Shown: positions 10,244 to 27,862, numbered from the stretch's first letter. The stretch is DNA of 64,000 bases from Pseudonocardiaceae bacterium YIM PH 21723 (GCA_003600225.1 QZFT01000034.1:62001-126000); one strand, 5' to 3'. Numbers and translations: made by a program. The notes: generated from the sequence alone by a model not told the origin.

Positions 10244-10690
10244 TTAGCCGTGCTTCGCCGGGTCGTATTCCTCAACGTCACAGCCCTCCAGGCTGAAACG
10301 CTGGAAGACCTGCAGCGCCTGCTCCGAAACCACCAGCCGCGCCTTCCCGGAGAGCCCGATGTGGTCCTGCCCCGCCGTACCGGTGACGTCGAACCACCTA
10401 AAATCGGGAACGCCGTCCAGGTTGAGCTGCGCGACGAGCTCCAGCGCTTCCGGTTCGATGGTCACCTGAGCGTCTCGCAACTCGAACGCACGCAACCCCG
10501 ACTCGACCATCGCCGCAGCCAGCGGCTCGGTGACGAGGTGCACCGGGAAGAGCTTGATGACGTCTTCGCCGAACCAGTTGTCGATGGCGATGTGCAGGCG
10601 CTCAACTCGCGGCGGGTGAACGGAGGTGTCCAGGACGGCGTTCTCGCCGAGGTCGCCGGGGATGTTCGGGGTGAGCGTGTAAAAGGGCAT
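10244..10690 (-). CDS. Putative immunity protein of the adjacent toxin
   Basis: This 148-residue acidic soluble protein starts at the ATG at 10690 with AAGGTGAT upstream, 5 bases after the stop of the toxin gene. It has two segments of mixed alpha/beta character, including VERLHIAIDNWFGEDVIKLF and EALELVAQLNLDGVPDF. I do not recognise the family. Its position directly downstream of, and co-directional with, a polymorphic toxin is the standard place for an immunity gene. The immunity function is inferred only from that position. Confidence 0.55.
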   Translation of the reverse strand: MPFYTLTPNIPGDLGENAVLDTSVHPPRVERLHIAIDNWFGEDVIKLFPVHLVTEPLAAAMVESGLRAFELRDAQVTIEPEALELVAQLNLDGVPDFRWFDVTGTAGQDHIGLSGKARLVVSEQALQVFQRFSLEGCDVEEYDPAKHG

Positions 10691-10695
10691 CGGAA

Positions 10696-11835
10696 TCACC
10701 TTGGTGGGTTGAACTGGCTGCCGTACTTCGCGTCGAGCTTCGTGGCGTGTTCCAGCAGCTGGTCCTTCGTCGCGGCTGGGTTGTTTTCGTAGAACTCGTT
10801 CCACTCTTTGCGCAGGTCCCGCAGATGAAGGTGGCGGTTCATCTCGTTGGGGATTCCGCGGAGGTTCTCCAGCGAGTGCATTTCTTCGGGGGTGATGCCA
10901 GCCGCAGGATACCGCTTGACCGCGCCCTGTTCGACGGCGTGGTGGACCACCACCTGGCCTTCAAGGTCGGGGTGGGCTTCGAAGAAGGTCTTGCGGTAGT
11001 CCTTGCGGACGGCCTTGCCGAACCGGGCCGCTCGCGCGCCTTCCTCGCCGGCTTTGGCGATCTTCTCGACGGTCTTGGCGACCTTGCCCGCACCGGCACC
11101 CCAACCGAGGAAGGGGATGGCGGCTCCCGCGGTAATCGCCGCTTCGGTTGTTCGTCCTTCGAGGGCGTACCAGCCGGCGTGGGCCAGGTCGATGGCATCG
11201 CCGATGCCGGGAACGAAGCCGACCGCGTCGAGCACCGTGTGGCCGATCATGGCAGCGGTGCTTTCCTTGTACTGCGGAGCGCCTGCAGCCAGGTCGCGGA
11301 GCTGCTGGACGGTCTCGTCCCCGACGCTCTGGAGCTGATCCCGGGCCCGGGTCAGCAGTTCCTGCGCCGCTTCTCGGTAGGCCGCACCGGGGTCGTTGAA
11401 CGGTGGCGGTACGTCGAGGGTGATGCTGCCCGGGTCGTGCCTGGCTTGTTGCTCGGCCACGGCCTCGTCGTCGGCCGCTTTGGCCTGCTGGGTAAGTTTC
11501 TGGCCCTTGTCGTACAGGGCTATCGCTTCGATCGCCTGTCGCTGCGCCCAGATCAGGGTGTTGGCGTACAGGTCCAGGGCTTGGGCGCCGGCGGCCATTC
11601 CGTCACCCGTGTCCAGCCATCTCGGCACCTCTGACTGGTGTCTGCTCGACCACGCGTCGTGTGCCGTGCCGCGCCAGTAGCCGGTGTCGATGCGTTTCAG
11701 AGTTTCGCCGCTGGCGATGATGTCGGTGGCGCGATCCCGGACTACCCGGGCGTTTTCGAAGATGGCTTCCGGGTCACCCGGGATCAGGGCCTTGGGATCG
11801 TCGGTCTGACCTAATTCGGCTCGGTCCATACTCAT
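10696..11835 (-). CDS. Polymorphic toxin: WXG-type N-terminus, HNH-like C-terminal nuclease
   Basis: The 379-residue protein has an N-terminal helical domain (residues 1-120) with YWRGTAHDAW, a WXG-style turn typical of type VII secretion substrates. A middle region follows (about 180-255) with a Gly/Ala-rich stretch (VGFVPGIGDAIDLAHAGWYA) common in pre-toxin regions. The C-terminal toxin (about 270-379) contains VVVHHAVEQ, EMHSLENLRGIP and NRHLHLRDLRKEWNEFY. These match the shape of HNH/LHH-type nuclease toxins, with the HH pair and the later N and H residues as likely metal-site and catalytic residues. It is flanked by a small helical partner upstream and a putative immunity gene downstream. 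Target (DNA or RNA) is unknown. Confidence 0.8.
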   Translation of the reverse strand: MSMDRAELGQTDDPKALIPGDPEAIFENARVVRDRATDIIASGETLKRIDTGYWRGTAHDAWSSRHQSEVPRWLDTGDGMAAGAQALDLYANTLIWAQRQAIEAIALYDKGQKLTQQAKAADDEAVAEQQARHDPGSITLDVPPPFNDPGAAYREAAQELLTRARDQLQSVGDETVQQLRDLAAGAPQYKESTAAMIGHTVLDAVGFVPGIGDAIDLAHAGWYALEGRTTEAAITAGAAIPFLGWGAGAGKVAKTVEKIAKAGEEGARAARFGKAVRKDYRKTFFEAHPDLEGQVVVHHAVEQGAVKRYPAAGITPEEMHSLENLRGIPNEMNRHLHLRDLRKEWNEFYENNPAATKDQLLEHATKLDAKYGSQFNPPR

Positions 11836-11841
11836 CGGAGA

Positions 11842-12171
11842 TCAGCTGTCCTCCGCGATCTGGACTGCTGGATCACTGAATCCTCGGGTGCTGGAGTGCT
11901 CGGCTTCCCGGTATACCTTGGCGACGGAGACCAAGCTGTCCCTCATGTCGTCGACCTTGTCGCACAACAGTTCCACGCTGGTGTCAAAGCTGTCGCAGAA
12001 GTCGATGAAGGCCTCCTGCACACCCTCATGTCCGTACATGTGAGCAGGCCCCGGTAGATCTTCGAGCTCGAAGTCGTCCTGCTTCCGCGCGATCTCGTCC
12101 ATCGCTTTGGCGGCGTCTTCCAGTACCGGGATTTCAACGTGATAGCCGGGCCCGTCCAAGGACATGCTCAT
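11842..12171 (-). CDS. Small WXG100/EspC-like helical partner of the toxin
   Basis: The protein is about 109 residues; starts at 12171 or 12165 are both possible after GGGGGT. It is acidic and helical, with the C-terminal helix DMRDSLVSVAKVYREAE resembling EspC/WXG100-like type VII secretion proteins, where the VAxxYrxxE pattern is common. It lies 6 bases before the toxin gene, so the pair probably forms a co-secreted heterodimer or a loading unit for an ESX system encoded elsewhere. No ESX machinery is visible in this window. Confidence 0.65.
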   Translation of the reverse strand: MSMSLDGPGYHVEIPVLEDAAKAMDEIARKQDDFELEDLPGPAHMYGHEGVQEAFIDFCDSFDTSVELLCDKVDDMRDSLVSVAKVYREAEHSSTRGFSDPAVQIAEDS

Positions 12172-12226
12172 CAACCCCCAACGCGAGCGATTCTGCTGAC
12201 GTGCCAACCGGATTCGAAAATTTTGA

Positions 12227-13360
12227 TCATCGTAGGGGAAGCTTCGTCGCCGTAGTCGGCTTTGACACGACGGCCCGCAATGACCGTGCGGCCAGATCTA
12301 CGGATTCAAGGAGGCTTTGGCGGAGATGACCCGGAATCGCTCCGGCACCCAACCCTGCACGCGCGACAAGATCAGAGAGTGCTGAGCGCTGCGATTCCGT
12401 TGCTCGGGACTGTGTTTCGCCGAATCTCAACACTTCCCTGGCCACGTAACCGTCGCCGGATTCAATCGCTTCGCTGATGTTCTGGCTGAGTACTCGTGCT
12501 GCGGCGTCTTGGTCGACGCGATCCGCGAGCGCAGCTACCGATAGCCCCAGTTGCGCGCGAAAGAACGCGTAGCCGACGACTGGTCGATGCTCGTGAAACC
12601 GGGTGATCATCGCGTCCACGCTGGCGTCCGGCCCGGCACTCAGGACGGACAGGCACTCTGCGACCGGCCGCTCCCATGGCTGGCTGGGGGTGCTGTCCTT
12701 CAACGCGGCTTGAGCCCGACCGAAGTCCTCCCTGATCACGGACGCGAGAATCTTGGCCTGGCGTCCCTCCATGAGGTGTAGTCCGATCCCGTTGTAGGCC
12801 TGGGCATGCACAACGGCGTCATCCCATCGGCCAGCGAGTACCAGGGCTCGGACGCCATCTCCCACCAGCTGAAGCCAGGTCCACTCCTGAAGCTTGCGGA
12901 ACTCGGCTCGAGTGCCGGCGAGGTCGGTCAGCGGCAGCCTCCGCTCGCCCAGCACCAGTTCGGTCCTGTTCCTGACGGCGTGAAAGAGGTCGATCAACAG
13001 TTGCAGTGCGTGGTCAGTGTCGCGTGCCCGTAGGGCGAGTCTGGCCAGATTGATCACGGGCTCAAGTAGGTGGCGTGCTTGCAGTGTCGTCAGTGGGCTG
13101 CCGCTGTCCAGATAGAGGTCGATGTGCCGCCAGCAGAGTTCGCGCGCTAGGTCCGGCAATCCGCAGTCGCTGCTGATCAAAGCGGCCATGTTGAGAATGT
13201 GGGCGCTGTCGTTCAAGGGATCGGCAGGGGCATCGTCGAGCTCATCGGCGGCATGGGCGAGGTTCTGAATTCTTTCGGTCAGTGCCGGGCACGGTGGCCG
13301 CGGCCGTCCGAGAAGTGGGAACCGGCGAAGCACGGCGGCCATCGCTGAAGTGGTCGTCAT
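12227..13360 (-). CDS. Helical-repeat (TPR-like) protein of the lanthipeptide operon
   Basis: The protein is 377 residues, almost entirely helical, with repeated Ala/Leu-rich helix pairs that suggest TPR-like scaffolding; no catalytic motif is seen. The ATG at 13360 lies one base after the stop of the elimination-domain gene, so it belongs to the same transcript as LanB and LanC. A role in regulating or scaffolding lanthipeptide production is inferred from position. Unlinked helical-repeat regulators are frequent beside actinobacterial RiPP genes. The long gap of 55 bases to the toxin partner downstream leaves it open whether the transcript continues. Confidence 0.55.
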   Translation of the reverse strand: MTTTSAMAAVLRRFPLLGRPRPPCPALTERIQNLAHAADELDDAPADPLNDSAHILNMAALISSDCGLPDLARELCWRHIDLYLDSGSPLTTLQARHLLEPVINLARLALRARDTDHALQLLIDLFHAVRNRTELVLGERRLPLTDLAGTRAEFRKLQEWTWLQLVGDGVRALVLAGRWDDAVVHAQAYNGIGLHLMEGRQAKILASVIREDFGRAQAALKDSTPSQPWERPVAECLSVLSAGPDASVDAMITRFHEHRPVVGYAFFRAQLGLSVAALADRVDQDAAARVLSQNISEAIESGDGYVAREVLRFGETQSRATESQRSALSDLVARAGLGAGAIPGHLRQSLLESVDLAARSLRAVVSKPTTATKLPLR

Positions 13361-13361
13361 G

Positions 13362-14294
13362 TCAGCTCCGCGGCAGTAGGGCGTTGTGCGCGGCATGAGC
13401 CAGAACGCCTTGCGTTGTTGCCGACAGGCCGAGCCGGTTCCAGTGGAAGATCACGACGTGGGTCAGAACCGCGCGTAAGCCGCGGTACAACCGGCCCTGT
13501 GCTGCGGCATGGCCCAGTCGTGCGGCATGGCAGGACAGCTCCTCTAGCCATGTTGCGGCACGTTCCGCTGATCCACCTGGTGCGAACAGCTCGCTGCCTC
13601 TGATGTCAGGGAGCACGAGGCCACGTAGCTGGTCGGTCAACTTCGCGACCCGACCACCATCGGTGTTCGCGGGCGGTGGCCGGAGCTGGGACACCCGATG
13701 GTAGACATCGCCAGCTTCGAAGGCGTCCAGACCAGCGGCGCGCATGGTCGCGTTCAGCAGCAGGATCGAGAGTTCCCTTCTGCCTATTTCAGAGGAGCCT
13801 TCGCGCAGGTAGGCGAGCGCGCCGACGGTATCGGCGCAGAAAAGGTCATGTACGAGCTCCATGGTGGCCGGGCCTCCGAAGGCTGCGGTTTCGGGTTCGT
13901 ACACCGTCGGCCACCAGCGTTGGATCACACGGTCGTCAACGAGACCGTCCAGCGTGGAATTGACGGCCGCAGTGTCTGCGCTCAACAGCCGCAGTCGCCA
14001 GCAGGGGTACTTCCGCAGGAACCACCAGTTCACAGCGGATCCCTGGAAGATCAGCTGATCCAGGGCCGGTCCCAGAACCGTGGCGCCGGCGTTCTCGGTT
14101 GCTGTCCAGTCACGGAACTGGACACGCACCTCATACCAAGCCGAATCGGCACGTTGCTGCAGCGCGGTAAGCCCGGCCGTCCGGTAGGTGCTCACCGCGT
14201 CGTCAAGGTCTTCGGGAGAGAGGCCAAGCCTGTCGGCGACCGTATCCGTCGGAGTACCGCCGAGCACAGCCTGCACGCCTTCGGCGACCGTCAT
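13362..14294 (-). CDS. Stand-alone SpaB_C-type (thiopeptide-type) elimination domain protein
   Basis: The 310-residue protein matches the lantibiotic-dehydratase C-terminal family that removes glutamate from glutamylated Ser/Thr to give dehydroalanine or dehydrobutyrine. Visible family marks are EVRVQFRDW, then NWWFLRKYPCWRLRL, which corresponds to the family WxFiRYxdPxxHLRLR strand, and a late VIFHWNRLGL segment. The ATG at 14294 overlaps the LanC stop as ATGA, which decides the start over a longer in-frame ATG at 14318. It sits in an operon whose LanB already has a C-terminal domain, so it may supply the active elimination function or act on a second intermediate. Confidence 0.82.
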   Translation of the reverse strand: MTVAEGVQAVLGGTPTDTVADRLGLSPEDLDDAVSTYRTAGLTALQQRADSAWYEVRVQFRDWTATENAGATVLGPALDQLIFQGSAVNWWFLRKYPCWRLRLLSADTAAVNSTLDGLVDDRVIQRWWPTVYEPETAAFGGPATMELVHDLFCADTVGALAYLREGSSEIGRRELSILLLNATMRAAGLDAFEAGDVYHRVSQLRPPPANTDGGRVAKLTDQLRGLVLPDIRGSELFAPGGSAERAATWLEELSCHAARLGHAAAQGRLYRGLRAVLTHVVIFHWNRLGLSATTQGVLAHAAHNALLPRS

Positions 14295-15457
14295 GTGATC
14301 AACAAGCATGCGTCCCATCCCGTAATCGGCGGTGCGTTGGTGCGCGCGGTTTCCCTGGCCAACCCGATGCCTGCGGATCCGGTCAGCAGGCCGATGGGTG
14401 CTCCCTCGTGGAAAACCAGCCCAGAGGTAAACCGCGAGATGACTGCAGGAAGCCTCTCCGCGATGGCTAGGTTGCGGGCATCCCGAGCAGCACGGAAAGC
14501 CGTTTGGTACACGCCGGCCGCGCCGTGGCAGAGACTTGAGTCGGTGAGACGGTCGAGCTGGGCGTCGGCCAGGTTCGCTGCCATTGCCAGCTCAGCGAGT
14601 TCTTGCCGCTGGGTATCGTCGGTTGCCAATGCGGCCAGCTGTTGAGCCCGGGCGATACCCACTGCTCCGTAGCACCAGGACGGTCGGCCGGGCTGGGCCT
14701 GGCTGGTCTGGCCGGAGCGAATCTCGTCTCGGGTAAGCCACTGCGGCCACCATGGAACTTCGGAGTCCTCCTGGCGCCACCGGTCGAACCACTGAGTAAG
14801 CTTGGAGATCGCCTCAAGTTGACCTTCGACCATTAGCCCGCGTAAGGCAGCCAGCGAGAGCATGGCCAGCAGCCCAGCTGCACCGTGAGCCATTCCGAGG
14901 TTCGCGTGACCGCCTGGCGTCGGCACGCTGACATCGGGGTCGTGATCAACCCACCAGCCCGGCAGCTCAAGGTCATCCTCACAGTGTGAGCTGACTGCCA
15001 ATGCGCTCAGATAGCGGAGGATGTCAGCGAGCTCCTCGCATCCCGGATGGAGCCGCAGGAGCAGAGCCCCGATACCGGTCAACCCGCGGAACAGGTCGAA
15101 TTCGGCGAACGTGATGGACTGCGGGCGTTCCGTCGCGCCGATCAGGCGGCGACGAGCCAGGTGCAGTACATGCCGATCGAGTGTCCGGCCAGCCGCTCGA
15201 TACCGGGGATGCCGGTCGGCGACCGAGTGCAGGAGGAACGCGACAGCCGGCGCCCCGTAGTAGAGCCTGGCGTGCTCGGCGGCGTCGACTGGACCTGCGG
15301 TGACCGAGCGGATGGACTGCTGGGCCATTGCCCAGGCGCCGGTGCCGTTCCAGGCTCGTTCGGCGTGGAGCAACGCCGTGCCGATCATGCCGCGCCCCAG
15401 GGATTGCCCGGCAGCCTCGTCCACCGTCAAGGTGACGGCATCCAGGAGTCGGCTCAT
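14291..15457 (-). CDS. lanC: LanC-like lanthionine cyclase
   Basis: The 388-residue protein is a LanC-type zinc cyclase that adds cysteine thiols to dehydrated residues. Zinc ligands are visible in PSWCYGAVG (about residue 260) and SLCHGAAG (about 305), and an LanC-type glycine-rich motif NLGMAHGAAG precedes them. Length fits LanC (about 400). The ATG at 15457 overlaps the LanB stop as ATGA. Together with LanB and the FxLD precursor it makes a class I lanthipeptide system. Confidence 0.88.
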   Translation of the reverse strand: MSRLLDAVTLTVDEAAGQSLGRGMIGTALLHAERAWNGTGAWAMAQQSIRSVTAGPVDAAEHARLYYGAPAVAFLLHSVADRHPRYRAAGRTLDRHVLHLARRRLIGATERPQSITFAEFDLFRGLTGIGALLLRLHPGCEELADILRYLSALAVSSHCEDDLELPGWWVDHDPDVSVPTPGGHANLGMAHGAAGLLAMLSLAALRGLMVEGQLEAISKLTQWFDRWRQEDSEVPWWPQWLTRDEIRSGQTSQAQPGRPSWCYGAVGIARAQQLAALATDDTQRQELAELAMAANLADAQLDRLTDSSLCHGAAGVYQTAFRAARDARNLAIAERLPAVISRFTSGLVFHEGAPIGLLTGSAGIGLARETARTNAPPITGWDACLLIT

Positions 15458-18400
15458 CACGCACCTGCCACGGCGAGTGAGCGCTGGGCGACGGCGCGGG
15501 CCAGGCGGCCGGTGACCGCCTCCAGGTCCGGGTCGATGCCGACAGCTCGCATGTGGTGCTCGTGCAGCAGCGTGCGCAGAACAGCATTCGGTGGATGTTG
15601 CTGCTCGATGAGAGCCTGGTAGTAGTGCCGTAGCGATTCGTCTCGGGCCTGCCAGGCGTCGGCGACCGCCTCTCCACCCGGCACAGCCTGCAGACTGCTC
15701 GCGGTCAAGCTGAGCGCCTGCTCCCGCAGTCCTCTCTCCAGGGGGCCGTAAGCCCGAGGCAGACAGTCCAGCAGGGCCAGATAGCCGGAACGCGGATCGG
15801 GAGCGAAGGCTGCGGCCAGGTGCGCCATCGAGGTCGCGGCCAACGCCTGCGCCGAGATGCCTGCCGACCGCGTCACCGCTTGTTGCGCGATGGCGGCAGC
15901 GGTATCCGTGGCGAACACACGTCGCGCTGCTGAATGGGCTTCGCCATCGCCGTACCGAGCGCGGTGCTGGGGCGTCGCAGCGAAGGAGATCTGAGCTGGA
16001 AGTCCGTCGGTTTCCAAACCAGCGGTGAACGTAGCCAGGTGGGCCGCGACCGCTCCGAAGTGCTGGGGGCTGGTCAGCTGCAGGAAGAGCGCGAGGTGTT
16101 GATCGGAGTCGGGATGGATCAGGTCGCGGTACCGCCGCACCCACCAGGATTCGACCAGATTCTCCTGGCGCAGGGATTCAGCCAGGCTCGGCACGTGGCC
16201 GGTGAGTATGTCATCGAACCGGGCTGGATCACCGATGATCTGCGCGTGCACGATGTCCGAGTCGCCGGGCCGTTCGAGGCGGCCAGGCGCAGCGGTGATC
16301 GGCAGTCGCTGCGGCTGCGGGGCGAGCAGGGTCAGCGGAATCAGGAACTCCGCAGGGCGCCCGATCCAGCCCTGACAATCGGCCGAGCCGTCTTCCTGCA
16401 GTTCGAGTCGTTCACCGCGATCGAGCCGGGCGAACAACAACGAGCGATCCAGCTCTAGATCGAGGTCTAAAGGCAGCCGGGCTCCGGAGCTGACCATGAC
16501 AACCCTGCTCGGCACGCGCCATCGATCACGCCATTCCGGTAGCGCACACCGGCGTCTAGGAGCGAGATCGGCCGGGTTCACCAGCCATCGCGCGGCTGAC
16601 AGAACGGTGTGCCGATAGCGGATGCGCGGCACGTAGGGCAGAGCACGAGCGGCACCCAGGTCGAAGGCACGGAACGCCGCGCTGCGCGCCGAGGCGACCT
16701 CCGCGATGAACCGGGCCAACGGCGGAGTCTGCACGGTGGTTTCCAGCGCGTGTGGAATCTGGGGAACGACTCGGCGTCCGGTGGATCGCTGCACCAGGTA
16801 CAGCTGTTCGGCGTCACAGGTGACCGCGAGGTCGTCGATGCCGATCGCCCCAGCGACCGGGTGCTCAGACAACGACACCACGTCCGGATGCACCGGCGCT
16901 ACCCGCGCCACGTTCTCGTTACGAGGCCGCCGGGACGGAAACGACAGGTGTGCTTCGACGACGTCTTCCGACTGTTCAGCGGAGTAGGTCGCCCTCAGCA
17001 GGCGCTGGTCGGGTTCGGTGAGCAGATGGGCGAATCGACCGACCATGCTGGTGTGTGCCAGCGGCGTGGCACTGACCCGCAGTAGGTAACGGCCACGGTC
17101 GAGTGCCTCGGTCGACTCAGCGTCGATCTCCACGCCCAGCTCGATCCGCTGCGGTAGGACCGCCTCCTGGTGCTCCCCGACCGTCAAGGCCTCGACGTCG
17201 GCGTCGGTCAGCTCTATCTCGTCTGCCCCTGCCATGATCGCCTGCTGGATCATGGCGCCAAGCGCGGCATCCCTGTCGGTCAGGACTCGCCAGGTAGGCC
17301 GGGGACGGGACGCACCGAGGTATCCGGCCGGGTAACCAAGACCGGAGTCCGCCACCAGTTCGCGTACCGGCACCAAGGTCCCCGGGCCGTACCGCGTGCG
17401 GAAACGCGCGTGGTAGTCGAGCCAGGCGCTGGATCCGAAGGGCCGGGTGGTCGTCCGCAGGAGCACGGTGGCTGCGCGAGCGACCTCGATGAGTACCTGC
17501 TCCGGGATGGTGATCTTCGCATCGAGGAGCGTGTCGATTGCCAGTGAGTGCTTTGCCTCGGGCACCAGGCCGGACATCTGCGCATTGAGAACGGCTCGGT
17601 TGGCCCGGGCATGTTCGATGTCATCGACGTGGTTGTGCCAGCTCAGACCAGAGTGGATCTCCTCCAGCTGCCGCAGGCCCGCGGCGATGTCAGGCGGCAG
17701 ATTCACGGTGGAGGAGTGGAGTTCTCCGATCAGATACGACAGTCCGTCCGGGCACGTCATGGGTGGCCGCAGGTTCGTGACCAGCACTCCGGCTTCGACC
17801 AGACCGCGCACCAACGAATCGATCTTGTTCACTGGCGCCGAGGGAAACCTGGTGACCAGGAGGCCGATGAGCGCACCGAACCGGATGGGCACACCTGCGG
17901 TTTCCAGCACGAACCGCACCGGGCCGGTAAGCCGAACCGAGGACTCCTGCGGCAACCCCGCGGTGAGCGCCTCGGCCTCCGCTCGGCGCTGCACACGGAC
18001 TCGTCCGTCCCGGATGACCAGCGCGTTTTCGACGATCACGGTGAGCTGTCCGAGCAGTTCAGTGTGCCGTTCGAAGCGGTCGATCAGACCGGTAAGCCAT
18101 CCGCCATCCGCTCGGGCAATCGCTCTGTGTCGGTTACCGAACTTGACGGCTGCAGGTCCGACGCCGGCAGCCGTGACTCCGGCGAACAGCCCGAACGGGG
18201 TGGCTCTACGTTGCCAGCGCAGCAGGTAGGACGCCAGGGAGACGACGGCGCTGCGCAGGACCTTGAGCGGCTGCGGGTCGGCCGATTCGTCGAGGATCTG
18301 ATCAACGCGCGCAGCGAGATCCGGGCTTGCCAGGAGCACCGCATCCTGGAACTCCGGCCGGCCCCATACCTTCGCCAGCCACGCCCGGCCTTCCTGTTCG

Positions 18401-18498
18401 ATTGTGTCCAGGTGCGCGGGTAAGTCCAGGTCCCCTGGAACTGTGGTGGCTCGGGCCAGGACGAATCCGGTGTGCGTGTAGCGGGTGGACACGGTCAT
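15457..18498 (-). CDS. lanB: Class I lanthipeptide dehydratase LanB
   Basis: This 1013-residue full-length LanB uses glutamyl-tRNA to activate Ser/Thr of the precursor and then eliminates glutamate. The N-terminal glutamylation domain contains the family block RWQRRATPFGLFAGV near residue 95. A middle block has RYRHTVLSAARWL. The C-terminal part, from about residue 765, has ESWWVRRYRDLIHPDSD followed by HLALFLQL, an elimination-like domain. It starts at the ATG at 18498, 76 bases after the precursor gene. Presence of both this C-terminal domain and a separate elimination protein downstream is unusual. No LanT transporter or LanP protease follows. Confidence 0.9.
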   Translation of the reverse strand: MTVSTRYTHTGFVLARATTVPGDLDLPAHLDTIEQEGRAWLAKVWGRPEFQDAVLLASPDLAARVDQILDESADPQPLKVLRSAVVSLASYLLRWQRRATPFGLFAGVTAAGVGPAAVKFGNRHRAIARADGGWLTGLIDRFERHTELLGQLTVIVENALVIRDGRVRVQRRAEAEALTAGLPQESSVRLTGPVRFVLETAGVPIRFGALIGLLVTRFPSAPVNKIDSLVRGLVEAGVLVTNLRPPMTCPDGLSYLIGELHSSTVNLPPDIAAGLRQLEEIHSGLSWHNHVDDIEHARANRAVLNAQMSGLVPEAKHSLAIDTLLDAKITIPEQVLIEVARAATVLLRTTTRPFGSSAWLDYHARFRTRYGPGTLVPVRELVADSGLGYPAGYLGASRPRPTWRVLTDRDAALGAMIQQAIMAGADEIELTDADVEALTVGEHQEAVLPQRIELGVEIDAESTEALDRGRYLLRVSATPLAHTSMVGRFAHLLTEPDQRLLRATYSAEQSEDVVEAHLSFPSRRPRNENVARVAPVHPDVVSLSEHPVAGAIGIDDLAVTCDAEQLYLVQRSTGRRVVPQIPHALETTVQTPPLARFIAEVASARSAAFRAFDLGAARALPYVPRIRYRHTVLSAARWLVNPADLAPRRRCALPEWRDRWRVPSRVVMVSSGARLPLDLDLELDRSLLFARLDRGERLELQEDGSADCQGWIGRPAEFLIPLTLLAPQPQRLPITAAPGRLERPGDSDIVHAQIIGDPARFDDILTGHVPSLAESLRQENLVESWWVRRYRDLIHPDSDQHLALFLQLTSPQHFGAVAAHLATFTAGLETDGLPAQISFAATPQHRARYGDGEAHSAARRVFATDTAAAIAQQAVTRSAGISAQALAATSMAHLAAAFAPDPRSGYLALLDCLPRAYGPLERGLREQALSLTASSLQAVPGGEAVADAWQARDESLRHYYQALIEQQHPPNAVLRTLLHEHHMRAVGIDPDLEAVTGRLARAVAQRSLAVAGA

Positions 18499-18574
18499 GG
18501 TCGTTCGCGCTCCTCACACGGTCCGGAGCTGTCGCCGACGACCGAGGGAGTGATCGCCGGCGACAGATGGCAGG

Positions 18575-18754
18575 TCAGGATGGGTCGTTCGAACCAGAGG
18601 CGCATGCGCTGGTGTTGCAGGTGGAACCGCAACCGTCGTCCGTCTGGCACATCATGATCACCAGCGGGGTGGTCGCCTCCACCACACGCATGTCCAGCAC
18701 GAACTCGTCCTCGAATTCGGCGTCCACGAGGTCATCGTTGAGTACTGCGGTCAT
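18575..18754 (-). CDS. FxLD-family lanthipeptide precursor, 59 residues
   Basis: The start is an ATG with AAGGAG seven bases upstream. The leader carries the family motif FVLD at residues 18-21, followed by MRVVEATTPLV. The core (about residues 31-59) contains four cysteines (C36, C42, C46, C51) among Ser/Thr residues (T38, S44, T45, T48, S49, S53, S55), enough for several lanthionine rings, and the acidic pair D39-D40 followed by glycine. D40-G41 is a favourable succinimide/isoaspartate site, fitting the adjacent PCMT-like methyltransferase. It lies between that methyltransferase and LanB, all on one strand. Confidence 0.92.
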   Translation of the reverse strand: MTAVLNDDLVDAEFEDEFVLDMRVVEATTPLVIMMCQTDDGCGSTCNTSACASGSNDPS

Positions 18755-18798
18755 TCGGATTCACTCCTTAATTTGCTGGGTTGTGCGGAGCACTCTGG

Positions 18799-20031
18799 TC
18801 AGTCCTTGATCGGCCAGGAGATCGTGACCACGCCATGCTTCTTGGCCAATACAGCCGTGCCTGCGCCGAATTCGGGGAGCCGACTACCGGTCGGCCAGTA
18901 GCCGAACACTGGCTCCGCATCGCGAGCAGCGCGATCCCAAGCCTGGATCTGCTCGACCATCGCGTCGGCGGCCGACTGCCCGTGATCGCCATAGGCGTGC
19001 GCGCCGAACTCCACCCCGCTTCCCTCGGGAAGCGGCCGGACAGCCAGGTAGGCGAACGAGTCGTCCAGGACAGACCCGAAGGGGAACCAGTGTTTGCGCT
19101 CGCCGGCCAAGTCGGTGCCTTCATCGACCGCCATACGACAGAAACCAGGAAGGAAGGCCGCGAACCAGAGATGCAGCTCGGCGAAGGACACACCGAGGGG
19201 AATCGTGGCCCCTGACCACACGGTCGAGCGGTCGGTCGCCAGTACGTTGTCCAGCCGGTTGATGTCCTGCGGCGCATCCGCATCGAAGATGAGCCGGACA
19301 TGGTTGCCCAGTTTGTCGGGCAGCTCGAAGACCCGGCCGTCGTGGGCACCGTCGCCCTGCATCGGGACGAACCCGCAGACCTCGGCCGAGGTGCTCACCC
19401 AATGATCGCCTTCACGCCGGAATCCGATGCTTCGGGTGACACCGTTCATCCGCAGCGGGACTATAATCCTGCCGTCGGTCGCCAGTCGGTCCAGCCAGGC
19501 AGGTGCCAGATCCCAGGCACCCGCAGTCACCAGGATGGCGTCGACCGAATCGGGCAACTCCGGCAGAGGTTCACCGGCATCGGCCTGCAGCACGGTGACC
19601 CGGTCGCCGTATCCGGTCGCATCGAGCCGCTCCAAGGCGAGGTCGGTGACCTCACGGTCGATGTCCACGCTGAACACGCGTCCCTGCGGGCCGACGACTT
19701 CGGCTAGCAGGGCGGCGTTGTATCCACCGGAGCCGATCTCCAACACGGTCGCACCCGGGCGAAGCTCGGCCTGTTCGATCATCCGCGCCTGGATGAACGT
19801 CGCACTGGTGGACGACAGGGTCACGCCGTTGACGGACTTCTTGATCGCGACCGAGTTGTCGACGCTGTACGTGACCTCCAACGGCGTGCCGGCGGGTACG
19901 AACGCATGCCGCGGCACCGTTCGAAATGCCCGTTCAACTGCCGGCTGAACGATCATCTTTTGTTTGAGGAGCTCGTCGACCAGAGCGTCTCGGTGGTCGC
20001 CGGGGCTTGCGGTAGTGGGGAGTGAGTTCAC
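18799..20031 (-). CDS. FxLD-system O-methyltransferase (PCMT-like)
   Basis: The 410-residue protein belongs to the protein-L-isoaspartate O-methyltransferase-like enzymes specific to FxLD lanthipeptide clusters. The AdoMet motif VLEIGSGGYNAALLAEV lies near residue 125, preceded by the PCMT segment QARMIEQAELRPG, and RAFRTVPRHAFVP near residue 45 is characteristic. The C-terminal 200 residues form the extra domain of this family. The GTG at 20031 is chosen because GGAAAGAG lies seven bases upstream; the frame stays open further but without a good site. It is the first gene of the lanthipeptide operon and probably methylates an aspartate of the core, giving aspartimide or isoaspartate. Confidence 0.88.
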   Translation of the reverse strand: MNSLPTTASPGDHRDALVDELLKQKMIVQPAVERAFRTVPRHAFVPAGTPLEVTYSVDNSVAIKKSVNGVTLSSTSATFIQARMIEQAELRPGATVLEIGSGGYNAALLAEVVGPQGRVFSVDIDREVTDLALERLDATGYGDRVTVLQADAGEPLPELPDSVDAILVTAGAWDLAPAWLDRLATDGRIIVPLRMNGVTRSIGFRREGDHWVSTSAEVCGFVPMQGDGAHDGRVFELPDKLGNHVRLIFDADAPQDINRLDNVLATDRSTVWSGATIPLGVSFAELHLWFAAFLPGFCRMAVDEGTDLAGERKHWFPFGSVLDDSFAYLAVRPLPEGSGVEFGAHAYGDHGQSAADAMVEQIQAWDRAARDAEPVFGYWPTGSRLPEFGAGTAVLAKKHGVVTISWPIKD

Positions 20032-20156
20032 TTGGTTGCTCTTTCCACGGGGGTGGGCCGACTCAGCTTGTCGCAGCCCCTGATGATCGACTAGCTCATC
20101 CCTTATCCGTGTTGCTGCCCAGCTCCTGGACCACTGGACATATCCTGGACAACGTG
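20032..20156. promoter_or_regulatory. Divergent promoter region of the lanthipeptide locus
   Basis: About 125 bases separate the methyltransferase GTG (minus strand) from the likely start of the putative regulator (plus strand), so both promoters must lie here. The sequence is GC-rich and no convincing -35/-10 pair or palindrome was found by eye. Confidence 0.4.
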
Positions 20157-21338
20157 GTGTCCAGTCCGTCACTGTCCGCAGGCGAGGTCAAAGCCTGCCT
20201 GAAGCGCGCCCGCCAAGGTCACGGCCTGGCGCGTCCGACAAGCCTGCTGACGGTCTTCTCTCCGGCAGTCCGCGCACACCTGCACGACTCATCCGGCGAG
20301 TCTGGCTCGGCTGGTGAGGTCACGGCGTTGGTCGGTGCCCTGCGGCGCGCGATCGAGCAACTGGGCGATGACGAGCGGCTATACGTGGAGGCCGATTTCA
20401 ATCTGGTTCCCGAGCACCGGTATCCCACGCTTACCGAGCGGCAGGAGTCTCTGGCGCGGCAGCAGAAGTGCGCTGCCAAGACCGTTCGCCGGCATGCTGA
20501 TCGAGCGCTCGACACCCTCGCCTATCTCCTGCTCGCCGACCAGCCGGCCACACCCAGTCCTGCGGCTTCGGAAGACCGTGCCGTCCGTACAGATGTCTGG
20601 GGTGAAGACCTGCGTCGGTTCTGGCGGCTCGCCGAAGGCGCCCGCATCGACATCGTCTGTTCGGAGATCCCCCAGGACGAGCGGCCGGAGTACGCCTGGC
20701 CGACCGATCGGAACTACCTGCGCTACGCCAAGTTCGCCGACCTGGACACGCTGATCTACCTGCGTACCAGGATGGCACAGCTGGCACCCCAGGTGACGGT
20801 GCGGGACTTCGCGCCGTCGGAGTACTACGACACCCAAGCCGATGTGATGGTCGTGGTGGGTGGCCCGCCGTGGAACGCCAAGTACCGCGAGTTCCTGCCA
20901 CAGCTGCCCTACTTCTTCCAGCCGAACGAGCTGGGCGAGGACGATCCGCTGGTCGTCCCGTCGCTGGGCGGGCTGACGCTCGGGCCGCGGTGGACCGAGC
21001 GGCATGAGCTGCTTGAAGACCTGGCTGTGGTCACCCGGCTGACGCTCGCGCAGGGCACCACGGTGTTCCTGCTCGGCGGTTGCCTGACTCTGGGTGTGCT
21101 CGCCTCGGCCCGGTGCCTGCTGGAGGCCGAACGTGGGGCTCGAAGCGTCGGGTACCTAACTGAGCAGGTCGGCGATGCTGACTTTGTGCTCGTCACGGAG
21201 GCCCGGCGGATCGGTGGCTTCACCGATGTCGCAGACCTGACGATGGTGGAACCGCTGCTGCTGCTCGCCCGGAGCAACAACAAGCCATTCGCCACGGTCG
21301 TCGACAACTCCACTCGGTACGGGCAAGGCGTCCAGTGA
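20157..21338 (+). CDS. Putative HTH-containing regulator divergent from the lanthipeptide operon
   Basis: The protein is about 393 residues if it starts at one of two consecutive GTG codons at 20154/20157; the start is uncertain. Residues about 90-125 (RQESLARQQKCAAKTVRRH) look like a helix-turn-helix of the kind found in actinobacterial regulators. The C-terminal half is alpha/beta with several hydrophobic strands (DVMVVVGGPPWN, TTVFLLGGCLTLGVLASAR, DADFVLVTEARR), suggesting a Rossmann-like sensory domain. I know no named family. It overlaps the family 25 glycosyltransferase by 4 bases (GTGA). Control of the lanthipeptide genes is inferred from the divergent position. Confidence 0.5.
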   Translation: MSSPSLSAGEVKACLKRARQGHGLARPTSLLTVFSPAVRAHLHDSSGESGSAGEVTALVGALRRAIEQLGDDERLYVEADFNLVPEHRYPTLTERQESLARQQKCAAKTVRRHADRALDTLAYLLLADQPATPSPAASEDRAVRTDVWGEDLRRFWRLAEGARIDIVCSEIPQDERPEYAWPTDRNYLRYAKFADLDTLIYLRTRMAQLAPQVTVRDFAPSEYYDTQADVMVVVGGPPWNAKYREFLPQLPYFFQPNELGEDDPLVVPSLGGLTLGPRWTERHELLEDLAVVTRLTLAQGTTVFLLGGCLTLGVLASARCLLEAERGARSVGYLTEQVGDADFVLVTEARRIGGFTDVADLTMVEPLLLLARSNNKPFATVVDNSTRYGQGVQ

Positions 21339-22081
21339 TCACGGCGGCCGACTTACGAACCTACGTGATCAACCTTCCTCGCCGACCTGATCGACGAGCG
21401 TGGATCAGCCGGACCCTGCCGCCGGAGCTGAAGGTCACCTTCACTTCGGACTGGACCGGTCCGTACGACGGCCGCGACCTCACCGTCGAGGCGCTCCATG
21501 ACGCCGGCTACGCCCTCTTTCCCTGGCAGATCGACTCGGACAATCCGTGGTGGAACCGGCCGCTCAAGTTCGGCGAGATCGGCTGCACGTTAGCCCACCT
21601 GGCCTGCTGGCAGGATGCGGAAGTGGCTGGCGACGAGCGGTTCATCGTGGTTCTTGAGGACGACGCCGTGCTGCCAACCAACTTCGATGTTGAGTTGATC
21701 GCAGGGCTAAATCGAGCGCCCGCCTTCGATCTGCTCTATCTGGGAAGAGTGCCGCTAGAGCCGGACCTCCGACAGATCGATGGATTCGCCGTTCCCGGCT
21801 ACAGCCACTGCACCTATGGCTACGTCGTGAGCCGCGCCGGACTACGCCGGTTACTCAGAACGGGCATAAGCCAAGCGCTCGTGCCGGTGGACGAATTCCT
21901 ACCAGCGATGTACGTCCACCATCCGCGGCCAGACCTACAGGCACAGTTTCCGCAGCAACTCACCGCGCTGGCCTTCGACCCGCCGCTCGTGAAACAGCGA
22001 CCGAAGGAGGAAGCCGGAAGCGACACGGAGGACTCCGAGTTCGCGCAGCTGCCATCTCGTCAGACGCGACTGCCCTCCTAG
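21335..22081 (+). CDS. Glycosyltransferase family 25 protein
   Basis: The 248-residue protein matches the LPS-type glycosyltransferase family 25. The N-terminal segment is YVINLPRRPDRRAW, a central block reads GEIGCTLAHLACWQ, and the acidic metal motif is RFIVVLEDDAVLP. These are the standard family blocks in the standard order. It starts at the GTG at 21335, overlapping the preceding stop. In this context it may glycosylate the lanthipeptide or a cell-surface acceptor; no evidence in the sequence chooses between them. The acidic C-terminal tail after residue 225 appears unstructured. Confidence 0.8.
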   Translation: MITAADLRTYVINLPRRPDRRAWISRTLPPELKVTFTSDWTGPYDGRDLTVEALHDAGYALFPWQIDSDNPWWNRPLKFGEIGCTLAHLACWQDAEVAGDERFIVVLEDDAVLPTNFDVELIAGLNRAPAFDLLYLGRVPLEPDLRQIDGFAVPGYSHCTYGYVVSRAGLRRLLRTGISQALVPVDEFLPAMYVHHPRPDLQAQFPQQLTALAFDPPLVKQRPKEEAGSDTEDSEFAQLPSRQTRLPS

Positions 22082-24137: not shown

Positions 24138-24907
24138 CTACGCGGCCCGGTGAGCCAGTCGACCGTTACCGCGATGGCCTCGTCCTCACGCTCCCGGCTG
24201 TCGAATCCGTGGTCGGATCCGAGCACAGTGTGGATCTCCGTGTTGGGCTTCTGGGCAGCCGCGTTCTTGGCAATGTCGTAGGACACTGCACTGTCCTGAT
24301 CACCATGCACGACCAGAGTCGGGACCGAGCTAGCGAGCAGGTTGTCCAGCGGCCGGTAGCGCTCGAACTCCTCGAACAGCACTCGGCCGGCCTCGAAGCC
24401 GTCGTCGATCTTCAGGAAACCCTGGGTTCCCAGAAGCTCTTGCTGCACGGGACTGAAGTTCTCCAGCCCCCACGGCAGTTCCGGCTCGACAAAGGTTCGC
24501 CGCAGGTCCAGCACGGGGTTCCAGAGAACAAGCCGTACCAGTCTCGTCCCGAGCCAGGGCAAAGACAGCGCAGTGGAAACCGCTCCGAAGCTGGACCCGA
24601 TGATGGTCAGCGGGCCCGGTAGATGTTCGGCGGCGTACTCGACCGCGGCCTGCAGGTCCAGGAGTTCACCGGCGATGGTCATCCCCCGCTGGGTACCGCC
24701 GCTATTGCCGTGGCCGCGGAAGGAGAACCGCAGAACGGCGAAACCCGAGCCGGCCAATTGGTCGGCGAGCCGGACGAACATACCGCCTTCGTCCAGGTCC
24801 ACGGTGATCCCGTGCAGCTGAACCACGGTGCCCCGGGGATCTGCCGCTCGATGCACTGCGGCGTCCAACAGCACACCATCGACCGACGTCAGCTGTACCT
24901 GTTCCAT
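24134..24907 (-). CDS. Alpha/beta hydrolase
   Basis: The 257-residue protein has the alpha/beta hydrolase fold. It shows the oxyanion region VVQLHGITVDLDEGG, then RFSFRGHGNSGG, and the nucleophile elbow IGSSFGAVS (GxSxG). TLVVHGDQDSAVSY gives the acidic residue, and a late GSDHGF gives the histidine. It resembles serine aminopeptidase/lysophospholipase (S33-like) esterases and lacks a signal peptide. An AGGAG precedes the ATG at 24907, inside the SARP gene. The substrate is probably an ester or thioester connected with the adjacent acyltransferase. Confidence 0.82.
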   Translation of the reverse strand: MEQVQLTSVDGVLLDAAVHRAADPRGTVVQLHGITVDLDEGGMFVRLADQLAGSGFAVLRFSFRGHGNSGGTQRGMTIAGELLDLQAAVEYAAEHLPGPLTIIGSSFGAVSTALSLPWLGTRLVRLVLWNPVLDLRRTFVEPELPWGLENFSPVQQELLGTQGFLKIDDGFEAGRVLFEEFERYRPLDNLLASSVPTLVVHGDQDSAVSYDIAKNAAAQKPNTEIHTVLGSDHGFDSREREDEAIAVTVDWLTGPRR

Positions 24908-25692
24908 GTGATCCGCTCCTGCACGCGGTGGGCTGATCGTGACGAGATCTCATCGTAGAAGCGTGCCGCTTGGCCGACGAACGCCCGACCCGAAGCACTT
25001 CGGTAATGCTCCGCGTAGTCCAGGTACTCCCGCCGGAGGTCATCAGTTCGTCCCAACCCATGCAAGCCTCGCAGACGCAGGTGGAGCAGGTCTGGGTCCC
25101 GTCCGCGGTCAGCGCTAAGCCGGTCAACTTCACGAAGCACGTCAGCGAACTGCTGAAGTTCAATCTGGCTGGAGAGCAGCCCGAGGCGCATCCGGAACTG
25201 GATCTCATCTACGCGACGGCGGAGTTGGATACCCGGATCTGTATCGAGATCGGGAAGCACGACGCCACCCCAGGAGTCCAGCGCCGTGCGGTACAGGCTG
25301 ACTGCCGGCAGATACATGGTCATCTTCGCCATGCACGCAGCACGTTCGCCAAGTCGCCTCGATCTATGGAAGTCGATGTCCCGGGCCTGCACGTTCAGTC
25401 GGAACCCTGTGCGGGAGCCTATGAGCGCTGTGGAGATGCCGATCTGGCGCAGGAGGGCACGGGCCCGATGAGCGTGCGTGTTCAGCGTTTTGTTTACTCC
25501 ACGCGGGCGTTCATCCGGGTTCCAGATGAGCTCGGCCAGTCTGCTCCGAGAAACCTCCTTCCCCACATTGAGCAACAGGACGGACAACATGGCTCGTGGA
25601 GTCGGCGAGAGTTCGATCGGACAGTACTCTTCGCCGTTCAGGACTTGTGTGCCGCCCAAGATTCGGAATCGCGGCAGATCCGGCTGCGTCAT
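24889..25692 (-). CDS. SARP-type regulator (OmpR-like HTH plus BTAD)
   Basis: The 267-residue protein has the arrangement of Streptomyces antibiotic regulatory proteins. The N-terminal winged helix has LSPTPRAMLSVLLLNVGK and SRSRLAELIWNPDERPRG, then NTHAHRARALL. A bacterial transcriptional activator domain of helical repeats follows, from about residue 115. It contains no NB-ARC domain, so it is the small SARP form. It overlaps the upstream TPR-HTH gene by 4 bases (ATGA). It probably activates a biosynthetic or stress operon, possibly its own. Confidence 0.8.
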   Translation of the reverse strand: MTQPDLPRFRILGGTQVLNGEEYCPIELSPTPRAMLSVLLLNVGKEVSRSRLAELIWNPDERPRGVNKTLNTHAHRARALLRQIGISTALIGSRTGFRLNVQARDIDFHRSRRLGERAACMAKMTMYLPAVSLYRTALDSWGGVVLPDLDTDPGIQLRRRVDEIQFRMRLGLLSSQIELQQFADVLREVDRLSADRGRDPDLLHLRLRGLHGLGRTDDLRREYLDYAEHYRSASGRAFVGQAARFYDEISSRSAHRVQERITWNRYS

Positions 25693-27131
25693 CGGACTAC
25701 TTCGTGGACAGGCTGCCGCCCGCGAGGCTTGAGCTCAGCTCCAGCTTCACAAAGCATGGTGCGCACGAACCCGAATGAGCGATCACACTCGCTCGCGAGG
25801 TTCCGGATGGACACCCCCTGGTCGTACCGCTCACGGAGGAGCCGCCCCATAGCCGACCGTTCGGCCCCGCTGATCGTGATTCCCCACGGAAGCTGAGGGA
25901 GGCCACCGGCGAGCTCCTGGCGGAGGCGCCATGCCTCGGCGTCGGCGCCCGGGCCGACGCCGCTGAAGATTCGAAGCGCCTCCTCCCACGACTCGTGCGC
26001 CAGATAGACCTGGTGGCTGGCGGCGTACGCCTGCCCCTGGACTACCAGTGCCCGAGCGATTTGGGCCGGCGCACCGTGCTCGAACAACGTGCGCAGCACA
26101 GGTGCCAGTTCAAGGAGCGCAGCAGTAGGTTCGCCGGCGTCGATGCGCACCTTCGCGAGGCAGCACACAGCTCGGGCGTGTCCGACGCCGTCGTCTGTCT
26201 CCGCCAACAGGTCGACTGCCGTCTGGAGGTGCTCGACCGACAGGTCATGGTTGTAGATCGCACGGTCCCCGTACAGCTCACCCAACCGCCGGTGGACGTT
26301 GGCGATCTCGTGGTGATCACCGGCCGCGGTTCGCAACCGCAGTGCGTAGTGGAGGTCCTCTAGCGCACCCTGCGGATCCCTGGAGCGACGGCCACGAGCC
26401 CTCGTCGCCAGGCCGGTAGCCACGAGCCAATCGAGTCCGAGAGCAGAAGCTTGAGCGATCGCATCCGTGCTGATCCGCTCGGCGGCCGAGCGGTCGTTCA
26501 GGTCGATGTGGCCGAAGGCCATCCGGATGAGACATCCAAGCTCGGCCATGACATTGCCCTCTTCCGCAGCTGCACGGGCACCACGGCGTTGGCTGTCGAC
26601 GAGTTCGCGTGGCAGACATGAACGGCGCAGACCGTTCCACATCGCCTCGGCCAGTCGATGGCTGTTCTCGTGCAGGTCGTGCTGCATCGCCAGCTGCTGG
26701 CATCCCAGGAGATTGCCGAGTTCTCGTGCGAACCAGGCTCTGGCCTCGCGTGCATCGGTGAACTCGTGATCAGTCGATACGACAACCGAGGCGCACCGCT
26801 GCTGGAACGGATTGAGAGCCAGATCCGCCGCAACAGCACGGTCGACGTACCAGTTCAACATTCGCCGCACGACCAGGTCGCGTTCGATGAAGCTGTCGTG
26901 CCTCATAAACAGGTTCTGCGCGTGCTCCCGGACCAGGTAGTAGAACAGGTACTCCCCAGGATTGAGCTCCTCAAGCAGGTAGTCCGACAGCAGTTCATCA
27001 ATCGCCTGCTGCACGTCCGGCTCGGAGCACCCGACGATCGTGGCAGCCGTGGCTGCCGAGAACGAGCCCGGGTGCACCGACAGTGCGCGGAAACAACGCT
27101 GAGCGTGTGTTGACAGGGTCGAGTAGCTCAT
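25689..27131 (-). CDS. AfsR-like effector lacking the NB-ARC ATPase: wHTH, TPR and C-terminal HTH
   Basis: The 480-residue protein starts at the ATG at 27131, overlapping the sigma-factor stop as ATGA with GAGGAAG upstream. The N-terminal 70 residues (AQRCFRALSVHPGSFSAATA, then a DYLLEE strand) match the winged helix that follows the NB-ARC in AfsR/LuxR STAND regulators. A long TPR region follows (about residues 90-400). The last 45 residues (RYDQGVSIRNLASECDRSFG, then FVRTML and EAGAELKPRGR) form a small HTH common in actinobacteria. No Walker motif is present. It looks like the C-terminal part of a split AfsR protein whose SARP part is the next gene. Confidence 0.7.
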   Translation of the reverse strand: MSYSTLSTHAQRCFRALSVHPGSFSAATAATIVGCSEPDVQQAIDELLSDYLLEELNPGEYLFYYLVREHAQNLFMRHDSFIERDLVVRRMLNWYVDRAVAADLALNPFQQRCASVVVSTDHEFTDAREARAWFARELGNLLGCQQLAMQHDLHENSHRLAEAMWNGLRRSCLPRELVDSQRRGARAAAEEGNVMAELGCLIRMAFGHIDLNDRSAAERISTDAIAQASALGLDWLVATGLATRARGRRSRDPQGALEDLHYALRLRTAAGDHHEIANVHRRLGELYGDRAIYNHDLSVEHLQTAVDLLAETDDGVGHARAVCCLAKVRIDAGEPTAALLELAPVLRTLFEHGAPAQIARALVVQGQAYAASHQVYLAHESWEEALRIFSGVGPGADAEAWRLRQELAGGLPQLPWGITISGAERSAMGRLLRERYDQGVSIRNLASECDRSFGFVRTMLCEAGAELKPRGRQPVHEVVR

Positions 27132-27862
27132 GGCGACCACTTCCTCGGTGAAGACGTCGTGTCCGCAGTGAGCTGACGTCGGTCGACGCTGCGCGGATGT
27201 ACTCGGACAAGTTGGGGGTTGGTGGCCGCTACATCACAGAAGGCGTCCCAGCAGTTCTGACAGCTGGCCAGATGGCCATCGACCGCTGTTGTCTGGCCTA
27301 GCGCGAGGCGCCCACGAAGCCAGTCGCCAGCCCGTCGCAGGAACTGGCCACAGCCCGGTAAAACAGGCTCTGGCGCCTGGACCTGGAGATAAGCAGCGCG
27401 CAGACCCTCTCTCGCCCGATACGCCTGCGCGGACACGGTGTTACCGGAGCAACCTGCGGCTTCGGCGAGAATTGATGCGCTCTGATCCAGCACGGCGGTC
27501 TGCCACAGCACCTGTCGCCAGCTCGCCGGTAGCTGGGCCAGGGCCTTTCCCGTGAGGGTCAGTTCTTCGGCATCCAGGAGCCACTCAGCAGGGCCACAAT
27601 CGCTACTGATCGATTCGTGGTCCGCTGACCAGTCAAGCCGGCGTTCCGCGTTCGATCGGTCGTAGGCGAGGTGTCGAACGCAGGTGAGCAGATAACTGCG
27701 AAACCGGGTCGGCAACTGTCCGGTCTGGCGGTTCCGTTCGAAGGTGCGGCAGAACGCTTCGGACACCAGGTCGTCAGCGTCGGCATCGCAGCGCGAGACT
27801 CGTTTCGCCTGCCGATACGCGGCGACCCGGTGCTCTTGGAACAACTCCAGCTCGCGGTTCAC
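27128..27862 (-). CDS. ECF-type sigma factor with a C-terminal zinc-finger-like tail
   Basis: The 244-residue protein has sigma region 2 (DADADDLVSEAFCRTFERNR, then SYLLTCVRHLAYDR) and region 4 (LAQLPASWRQVLWQT, ILAEAAGCSGNTVSAQAYRA). It carries a C-terminal extension with GHLASCQNCWDAF, an H-x3-C-x2-C pattern typical of anti-sigma zinc fingers (zf-HC2). The fused finger suggests self-inhibition or redox control instead of a separate anti-sigma gene. The ATG at 27862 overlaps the stop of the small membrane protein by 4 bases. Confidence 0.82.
   Translation of the reverse strand: MNRELELFQEHRVAAYRQAKRVSRCDADADDLVSEAFCRTFERNRQTGQLPTRFRSYLLTCVRHLAYDRSNAERRLDWSADHESISSDCGPAEWLLDAEELTLTGKALAQLPASWRQVLWQTAVLDQSASILAEAAGCSGNTVSAQAYRAREGLRAAYLQVQAPEPVLPGCGQFLRRAGDWLRGRLALGQTTAVDGHLASCQNCWDAFCDVAATNPQLVRVHPRSVDRRQLTADTTSSPRKWSP

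What the first reader, a model, noticed from the sequence alone, without database searches (positions are those of the whole stretch)
12227..20031. FxLD lanthipeptide cluster with a 59-residue precursor and an aspartate-targeting methyltransferase
The short precursor gene at 18575-18754 is easy to miss. It carries FVLD in the leader, four Cys, several Ser/Thr and an Asp-Asp-Gly site in the core. The adjacent PCMT-like enzyme suggests methylation and aspartimide or isoaspartate formation at D39/D40 in addition to lanthionine rings. Product and activity appear unpredicted by any known lantibiotic I recall.
Basis: partly seen in the sequence, partly recalled or inferred. Interest (0 to 1): 0.8.

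Follow-up and report, generated by a model that had tools for sequence, protein, structure and literature searches.

The report
Lanthipeptide cluster with swapped dehydration enzyme
This is a gene set for a small ring-bearing bacterial peptide of a known actinobacterial type, probably with one aspartate chemically isomerised, in which the main dehydrating enzyme seems to have lost one of its two activities and to depend on a separate helper enzyme that should change the handedness of the rings.

Summary
The cluster is real and belongs to the known FxLD class I lanthipeptides (coi/olv type). Precursor and methyltransferase match the curated models TIGR04363 (55.6 bits, cut-off 30) and TIGR04364 (478 bits, cut-off 320). 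Aspartimide/isoaspartate formation by such methyltransferases is published for OlvA, so that idea is right but not new. Of D39/D40 only D40 is invariant (74 of 74 aligned precursors). The new point: this LanB keeps its lyase domain but lacks the residues that hold the glutamate in NisB (R784, R786) and the conserved E823. LanBs without the Arg pair form one clade, and wherever the neighbourhood is complete a second lyase is present (38 of 38 in two samples); the 13 LanBs without a second lyase are all intact. Prediction: the syn-lyase does every elimination, so every MeLan ring should be the D-allo-L isomer. All of this is sequence inference; no chemistry was tested. New variant of a known kind.

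The parts
18799..20031 (-). FxLD-system aspartate O-methyltransferase (PAMT type): PCMT domain plus a C-terminal extension of about 185 aa
   Evidence: TIGR04364 478 bits (cut-off 320), residues 13-406; PF01135 100 bits, residues 14-225; SAM motif EIGSGGYNA shared with many relatives. The ORF opens as far up as 20172, so the start codon is not certain
18575..18754 (-). Lanthipeptide precursor, 59 aa, leader motif FVLD at 18-21, core with C36, T38, D40, C42, T45, C46, C51, S53
   Evidence: only match in the genome
18632..18640 (-). Codons of D39-D40-G41; D40 is the predicted methylation/aspartimide site, inside the predicted T38-C42 ring
   Evidence: D40 invariant in 74 of 74 distinct aligned precursors; D39 is D 49, S 16, G 7, N 1, E 1
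15457..18498 (-). LanB dehydratase, 1013 aa: glutamyl-transfer domain kept; C-terminal lyase domain without the NisB R784/R786/E823 equivalents (A, F, H here)
   Evidence: PF04738 667 bits and PF14028 77 bits; MibB alignment; family alignment; entropy test
14291..15457 (-). LanC cyclase, 388 aa
   Evidence: PF05147 131 bits; WCYG and CHG motifs
13362..14318 (-). Stand-alone glutamyl lyase, 318 aa, syn-type signature: Lys in RKYPCWRLR, both Arg and Glu kept, Ala at the R826 site, no His at the H961 site
   Evidence: PF14028 88.9 bits, TIGR03891 160 bits; family alignment
12227..13360 (-). Conserved protein of unknown function in the position of coiH; predicted all-helical TPR-like superhelix
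   Evidence: Same position in many related loci; AlphaFold mean pLDDT 89.9; TPR superhelices rank first structurally. ATG at 13360 directly after the lyase gene

Best explanation
A class I lanthipeptide cluster of the coi type in which dehydration is divided between two proteins. LanB transfers glutamate from Glu-tRNA to Thr/Ser of the core, but its own lyase pocket no longer holds glutamate. The stand-alone syn-type lyase removes the glutamate from every site, giving (E)-Dhb from Thr and Dha from Ser. LanC closes the rings; by alignment with CoiA1 these are T38-C42, T45-C51 and S53-C46, perhaps one more to C36. The methyltransferase then methylates D40 inside the first ring; the ester closes to an aspartimide and opens mostly to isoAsp. 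Shown here: gene content and order, residue losses, their phylogeny, D40 invariance. Inferred: all catalytic steps, ring pattern, stereochemistry. The activity of the product and its leader protease are unknown.
For: Family models over cut-off for precursor and methyltransferase. D40 invariant, D39 not. The window lyase has the Lys, both Arg and the Glu, an Ala for R826 and no H961-type His, the constellation reported for CoiSA and SptBb (PMC9486935, PMC9011353). LanB R784/R786 are A and F, E823 is H. Across 259 lyase-domain columns the entropy rise from intact to lost LanBs ranks R786 1st, R784 4th, E823 5th; in the transferase domain only 1 of 52 near-invariant columns is similarly loosened, against 6 of 23 in the lyase domain. 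The loss occurs once on the LanB tree (29 rows, support 100). A second lyase is present in 38 of 38 lost cases with a complete neighbourhood in two samples, one picked by precursor and one by LanB. CoiB with its lyase knocked out plus CoiSA(ED) gave full dehydration in E. coli (PMC9486935), so the division of labour is chemically possible.
Against: The lost LanBs mostly keep the H961 and R826 equivalents (H in 53 of 57, R in 47 of 57) and the domain is not decaying as a whole, so residual or altered lyase activity is possible. In CoiSA(ED) the Arg-to-Ala mutants were still active (PMC9486935), so loss of the Arg pair need not abolish elimination. Syn-lyases may prefer Thr, whereas position 53 here is Ser. 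The losses are one clade, so the Fisher value (p=0.0013) overstates independence.
Confidence: 0.72

Rival explanations
1. An ordinary coi-type pathway: the LanB lyase domain is still active on some sites by anti-elimination despite the substitutions, and the second lyase handles one ring, so the product has mixed MeLan stereochemistry like mCoiA1.
For: The His and Arg that act on the substrate in anti-lyases are mostly kept; the whole domain is kept at an identity close to that of the transferase domain; lyases tolerate various leaving groups (PMC9890492).
Against: R784, R786 and E823 are invariant in all 58 distinct intact LanBs and drift to six or more different residues each in the lost clade; R784/R786 are described as critical in NisB (PMC9486935); the second lyase is never missing where LanB has lost the pair.
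Confidence: 0.2
2. The LanB lyase domain has taken a non-lyase role, for example as a scaffold that docks the stand-alone lyase or the cyclase, or holds the core peptide. This is compatible with the best explanation and would explain why the domain is kept.
For: The domain is kept, with clade-specific conserved positions (763 P, 923 G, 1003 R in the ORF numbering), while the glutamate pocket is lost.
Against: No direct evidence of an interaction; another clade has dropped the domain altogether and has a lyase-methyltransferase fusion instead.
Confidence: 0.3
3. The cluster is a non-functional remnant.
For: Two catalytic arginines of LanB are missing.
Against: All six genes are open, and the same losses with the same gene set occur in 29 LanBs that form one clade and in named Pseudonocardiaceae, Streptosporangiales, Frankia and Streptomyces genomes.
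Confidence: 0.03

Closest known systems
coi cluster of Streptomyces coelicolor A3(2) (CoiA1, CoiB, CoiC, CoiSA, CoiH; PMC9486935)
   Same: Precursor with the same Thr/Cys spacing at the first ring and a TC pair, full-length LanB, LanC, syn-type lyase, aspartate methyltransferase and a further gene of unknown function.
   Different: Here the lyase is a separate protein, not fused to the methyltransferase; LanB has lost the glutamate-binding Arg pair that CoiB is reported to keep; a fourth Cys (C36) is present; the third ring position is Ser, not Thr.
olv cluster of Streptomyces olivaceus (OlvA, OlvB, OlvC, OlvSA; Acedo 2019, as described in PMC13001092)
   Same: Similar precursor, LanB, LanC and a methyltransferase that turns a core Asp into aspartimide/isoAsp.
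   Different: olv has no second lyase and an anti-type LanB.
spt cluster for SapT (split dehydratase SptBa/SptBb; PMC9011353, PMC9890492)
   Same: Glutamylation and syn-elimination lie on two polypeptides, giving (E)-Dhb and D-allo-L-MeLan.
   Different: SptBa has no lyase domain, whereas the window LanB retains a degenerate one; the spt cluster as described has no methyltransferase.
PAMT family (PMC10787088)
   Same: PCMT domain with a C-terminal extension of more than 100 aa next to a RiPP precursor.
   Different: No difference found in sequence features.

Membership tests
FxLD lanthipeptide precursor (TIGR04363) | Score above the curated cut-off | tested here: met
   55.6 bits, cut-off 30
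FxLD-system methyltransferase (TIGR04364) | Score above the curated cut-off | tested here: met
   478.4 bits, cut-off 320
PAMT (peptide L-aspartyl O-methyltransferase) | PCMT domain with C-terminal extension over 100 aa, beside a RiPP precursor | tested here: met
   PCMT 14-225 of 410 aa; precursor adjacent
PAMT (peptide L-aspartyl O-methyltransferase) | Methylates Asp and yields aspartimide/isoAsp | not testable with these tools
   Needs expression; only invariance of D40 is shown
coi-type cluster | Full-length LanB, LanC, methyltransferase and an additional glutamyl lyase in one cluster | tested here: met
coi-type cluster | LanB with a canonical anti-type lyase site (Arg pair, Arg, His) | tested here: not met
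   Arg pair replaced by A and F, E823 by H; R826 and H961 kept
syn-glutamyl lyase (CoiSA/SptBb type) | Lys in place of Tyr, Arg pair kept, non-Arg at the R826 site, no catalytic His | tested here: met
syn-glutamyl lyase (CoiSA/SptBb type) | Produces (E)-Dhb | not testable with these tools
   Needs NMR or MeLan stereochemistry
Class I lanthipeptide synthetase set | LanC with zinc-ligand motifs and LanB with a glutamylation domain | tested here: met
   WCYG and CHG motifs; PF04738 667 bits
TPR superhelix (the 12227-13360 protein) | Helical-repeat fold shared with solved TPR proteins | tested here: inconclusive
   Foldseek no match at E<=0.001; Z 10.8-14.5 to many TPR proteins, in the range that helical repeats can give without kinship

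The most novel reading that the evidence does not exclude
A widespread clade of full-length LanBs has given up its own lyase and depends on a syn-lyase in trans, so that every Thr-derived ring of the product is D-allo-L-MeLan, made by a LanC adapted to (E)-Dhb throughout. This would be the natural counterpart of the engineered CoiB lyase mutant, whose product CoiC could not fully cyclise, and would correct the published statement that full-length LanBs are all predicted to be anti-eliminating.
Probability: 0.55. Interest if true: 0.5.

Novelty: new variant of a known kind. Interest (0 to 1): 0.38.

Why it matters
The coi/olv comparison left open how ring stereochemistry and the cyclase co-evolve with the acquired syn-lyase. 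This clade offers natural clusters in which the anti-lyase appears to be switched off by evolution, so the LanC enzymes here should accept (E)-Dhb at all positions. It also tells genome miners that a full-length LanB does not guarantee an active lyase, and that expression without the stand-alone lyase will likely fail. The aspartate chemistry itself is already known.

Tried and rejected
Translation of the precursor on the plus strand gives nothing; the gene is on the minus strand. A class-wide LanB search over 400 genomes failed on the machine side and was repeated with 200. Foldseek on the 12227-13360 protein gave no match at E<=0.001 and the second look is not specific for one family, so no function is claimed. 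The Acedo 2019 paper on OlvSA is not held; its content is taken from the review PMC13001092. The 30 loci found through the stand-alone lyase all lack the Arg pair wherever a LanB is readable, but they were selected by that lyase and partly repeat genomes of the first sample, so they are not counted. No transporter or dedicated protease was found among the flanking genes scanned; the sister clusters are also reported to lack a protease (PMC9486935). The coi locus of S. coelicolor itself was not fetched; ring positions rest on the residue numbers in PMC9486935 and on the Streptomyces-like locus L110, whose core (TDDGCGSTCSSPCAT) has exactly that Thr/Cys spacing.

Full report
Observation. The six genes lie on the minus strand in the order methyltransferase, precursor, LanB, LanC, second lyase, unknown protein. 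The precursor is 59 aa with FVLD at 18-21, four Cys and D39-D40-G41. It scores 55.6 bits against TIGR04363 (cut-off 30), and the methyltransferase scores 478 bits against TIGR04364 (cut-off 320). The precursor model matches once in the 7.6-Mb genome and in none of 14 control genomes.

The finding is not unusual as a kind. Ninety-five of 297 genomes sampled from the same bacterial family carry a match to the precursor model. The literature describes the type: class I families I 1-4 of Walker 2020 (PMC7268733), OlvA with OlvSA (reviewed in PMC13001092), and CoiA1 with CoiB, CoiC and CoiSA (PMC9486935, PMC9011353).

Aspartate site. I took 20-kb regions around 80 precursor hits and read out the homologous genes and precursors. 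Among 74 distinct aligned precursors D40 is invariant; D39 is D 49, S 16, G 7, N 1, E 1; position 41 is G 55, N 18, E 1; T38 and C42 are invariant. The site is therefore D40, inside the predicted T38-C42 ring, in line with the published rule that the conserved Asp is usually followed by Gly (PMC13001092). The steps methyl ester, aspartimide, isoAsp are inferred from OlvSA; nothing was tested on this enzyme.

The missed lyase. The gene at 13362-14318 is a stand-alone Lant_dehydr_C protein. Aligned with some 65 other second lyases and with LanB lyase domains, it has Lys where anti-lyases have Tyr, both glutamate-binding Arg, the conserved Glu, Ala in place of R826 and no His at the H961 position. 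This is the constellation reported for CoiSA and SptBb, for which D-allo-L-MeLan or (E)-Dhb was shown experimentally (PMC9486935, PMC9890492). Stand-alone versions beside a full-length LanB were already noted in PMC9486935.

The degenerate LanB lyase. The window LanB reads HLALFL where MibB reads HLRVRF and most relatives HLRLR: both Arg are gone, and the Glu is His. In the first sample 29 LanBs lack the Arg pair and 40 keep it. On a tree of the glutamyl-transfer domain the 29 form one clade (SH-aLRT 100, one change); seven LanBs without any lyase domain form another clade. In a second sample, picked by LanB similarity in other families of the class, ten more LanBs lack the pair. Counting only loci with enough downstream sequence, a second lyase is present in 38 of 38 LanBs without the pair and in 45 of 58 with it; all 13 LanBs without a second lyase are intact. 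Because the loss is a single clade in the tree, this is one event that persisted rather than 38 independent ones. The drift is specific: of 259 lyase-domain columns R786, R784 and E823 rank 1st, 4th and 5th for rise in entropy, while R826 and H961 are mostly kept; 6 of 23 near-invariant lyase-domain columns rise by more than 1.5 bits against 1 of 52 in the transferase domain (Fisher p=0.003). The domain as a whole is not decaying, so it probably keeps a structural role. PMC9486935 states that full-length LanB proteins are all predicted to catalyse anti-elimination; two further literature searches found no report of this degenerate clade, though only open-licence papers are held.

Mechanism. 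Best reading: LanB glutamylates, the stand-alone syn-lyase eliminates at all sites, LanC closes rings, the methyltransferase acts last on D40. Ring positions by alignment to CoiA1 (T43/C47, T50/C55, C51/T57) are T38/C42, T45/C51, C46/S53; C36 is extra. In PMC9486935 a lyase-dead CoiB plus CoiSA(ED) gave full dehydration but CoiC could not complete cyclisation; the present clade looks like the same division of labour with, presumably, an adapted cyclase.

The last gene. The protein at 12227-13360 lies where coi has a gene of unknown function (coiH) and recurs in many of the clusters; homology to CoiH itself was not tested. Its AlphaFold model is confident (mean pLDDT 89.9) and all-helical; TPR superhelices, including peptide-binding Rap and NprR regulators, rank highest (Z up to 14.5 over about 250 residues), but helical repeats reach such values without kinship. 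A peptide-binding accessory role is a guess.

Verdict. Known kind of cluster, correctly recognised in outline, with an overlooked and apparently undescribed twist in the dehydration machinery.

Noticed in passing
10696-11835 (-), with 11842-12207 and 10244-10804 (-) beside it: A protein with a putative type VII secretion signal domain (PF21725, 133 bits, residues 4-188) directly beside the cluster, with small unassigned neighbours; possibly a secreted polymorphic protein with its partner genes.
   Followed up: no
20022-21338 (+) and 21335-22081 (+): Divergently transcribed pair next to the methyltransferase: a 438-aa protein without family hits and a glycosyltransferase family 25 protein (PF01755).
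   Followed up: no
L057, L058, L059, L060, L063, L064, L109: A separate clade of FxLD clusters with a LanB of about 680-770 aa that lacks the lyase domain and a lyase-methyltransferase fusion as the only lyase; their precursors read STGDGC or STGDNC.
   Followed up: partly
L086, L101, L105, L106, L114, L120: The second lyase and the TPR-like protein lie in one open frame, suggesting a lyase-H fusion, in a subgroup whose cores have a longer loop between the last two Cys.
   Followed up: partly
L144, L153, L154, L155: Relatives of the stand-alone lyase without a recognisable LanB in the fetched flanks; either remnants or lyases acting with an unlinked LanB.
   Followed up: no
24889-27862 (-): A run of likely regulators: an activator with a BTAD domain, a helix-turn-helix protein with weak TPR similarity, and a protein with sigma-70 region 2 and a zinc-finger-like match.
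   Followed up: no
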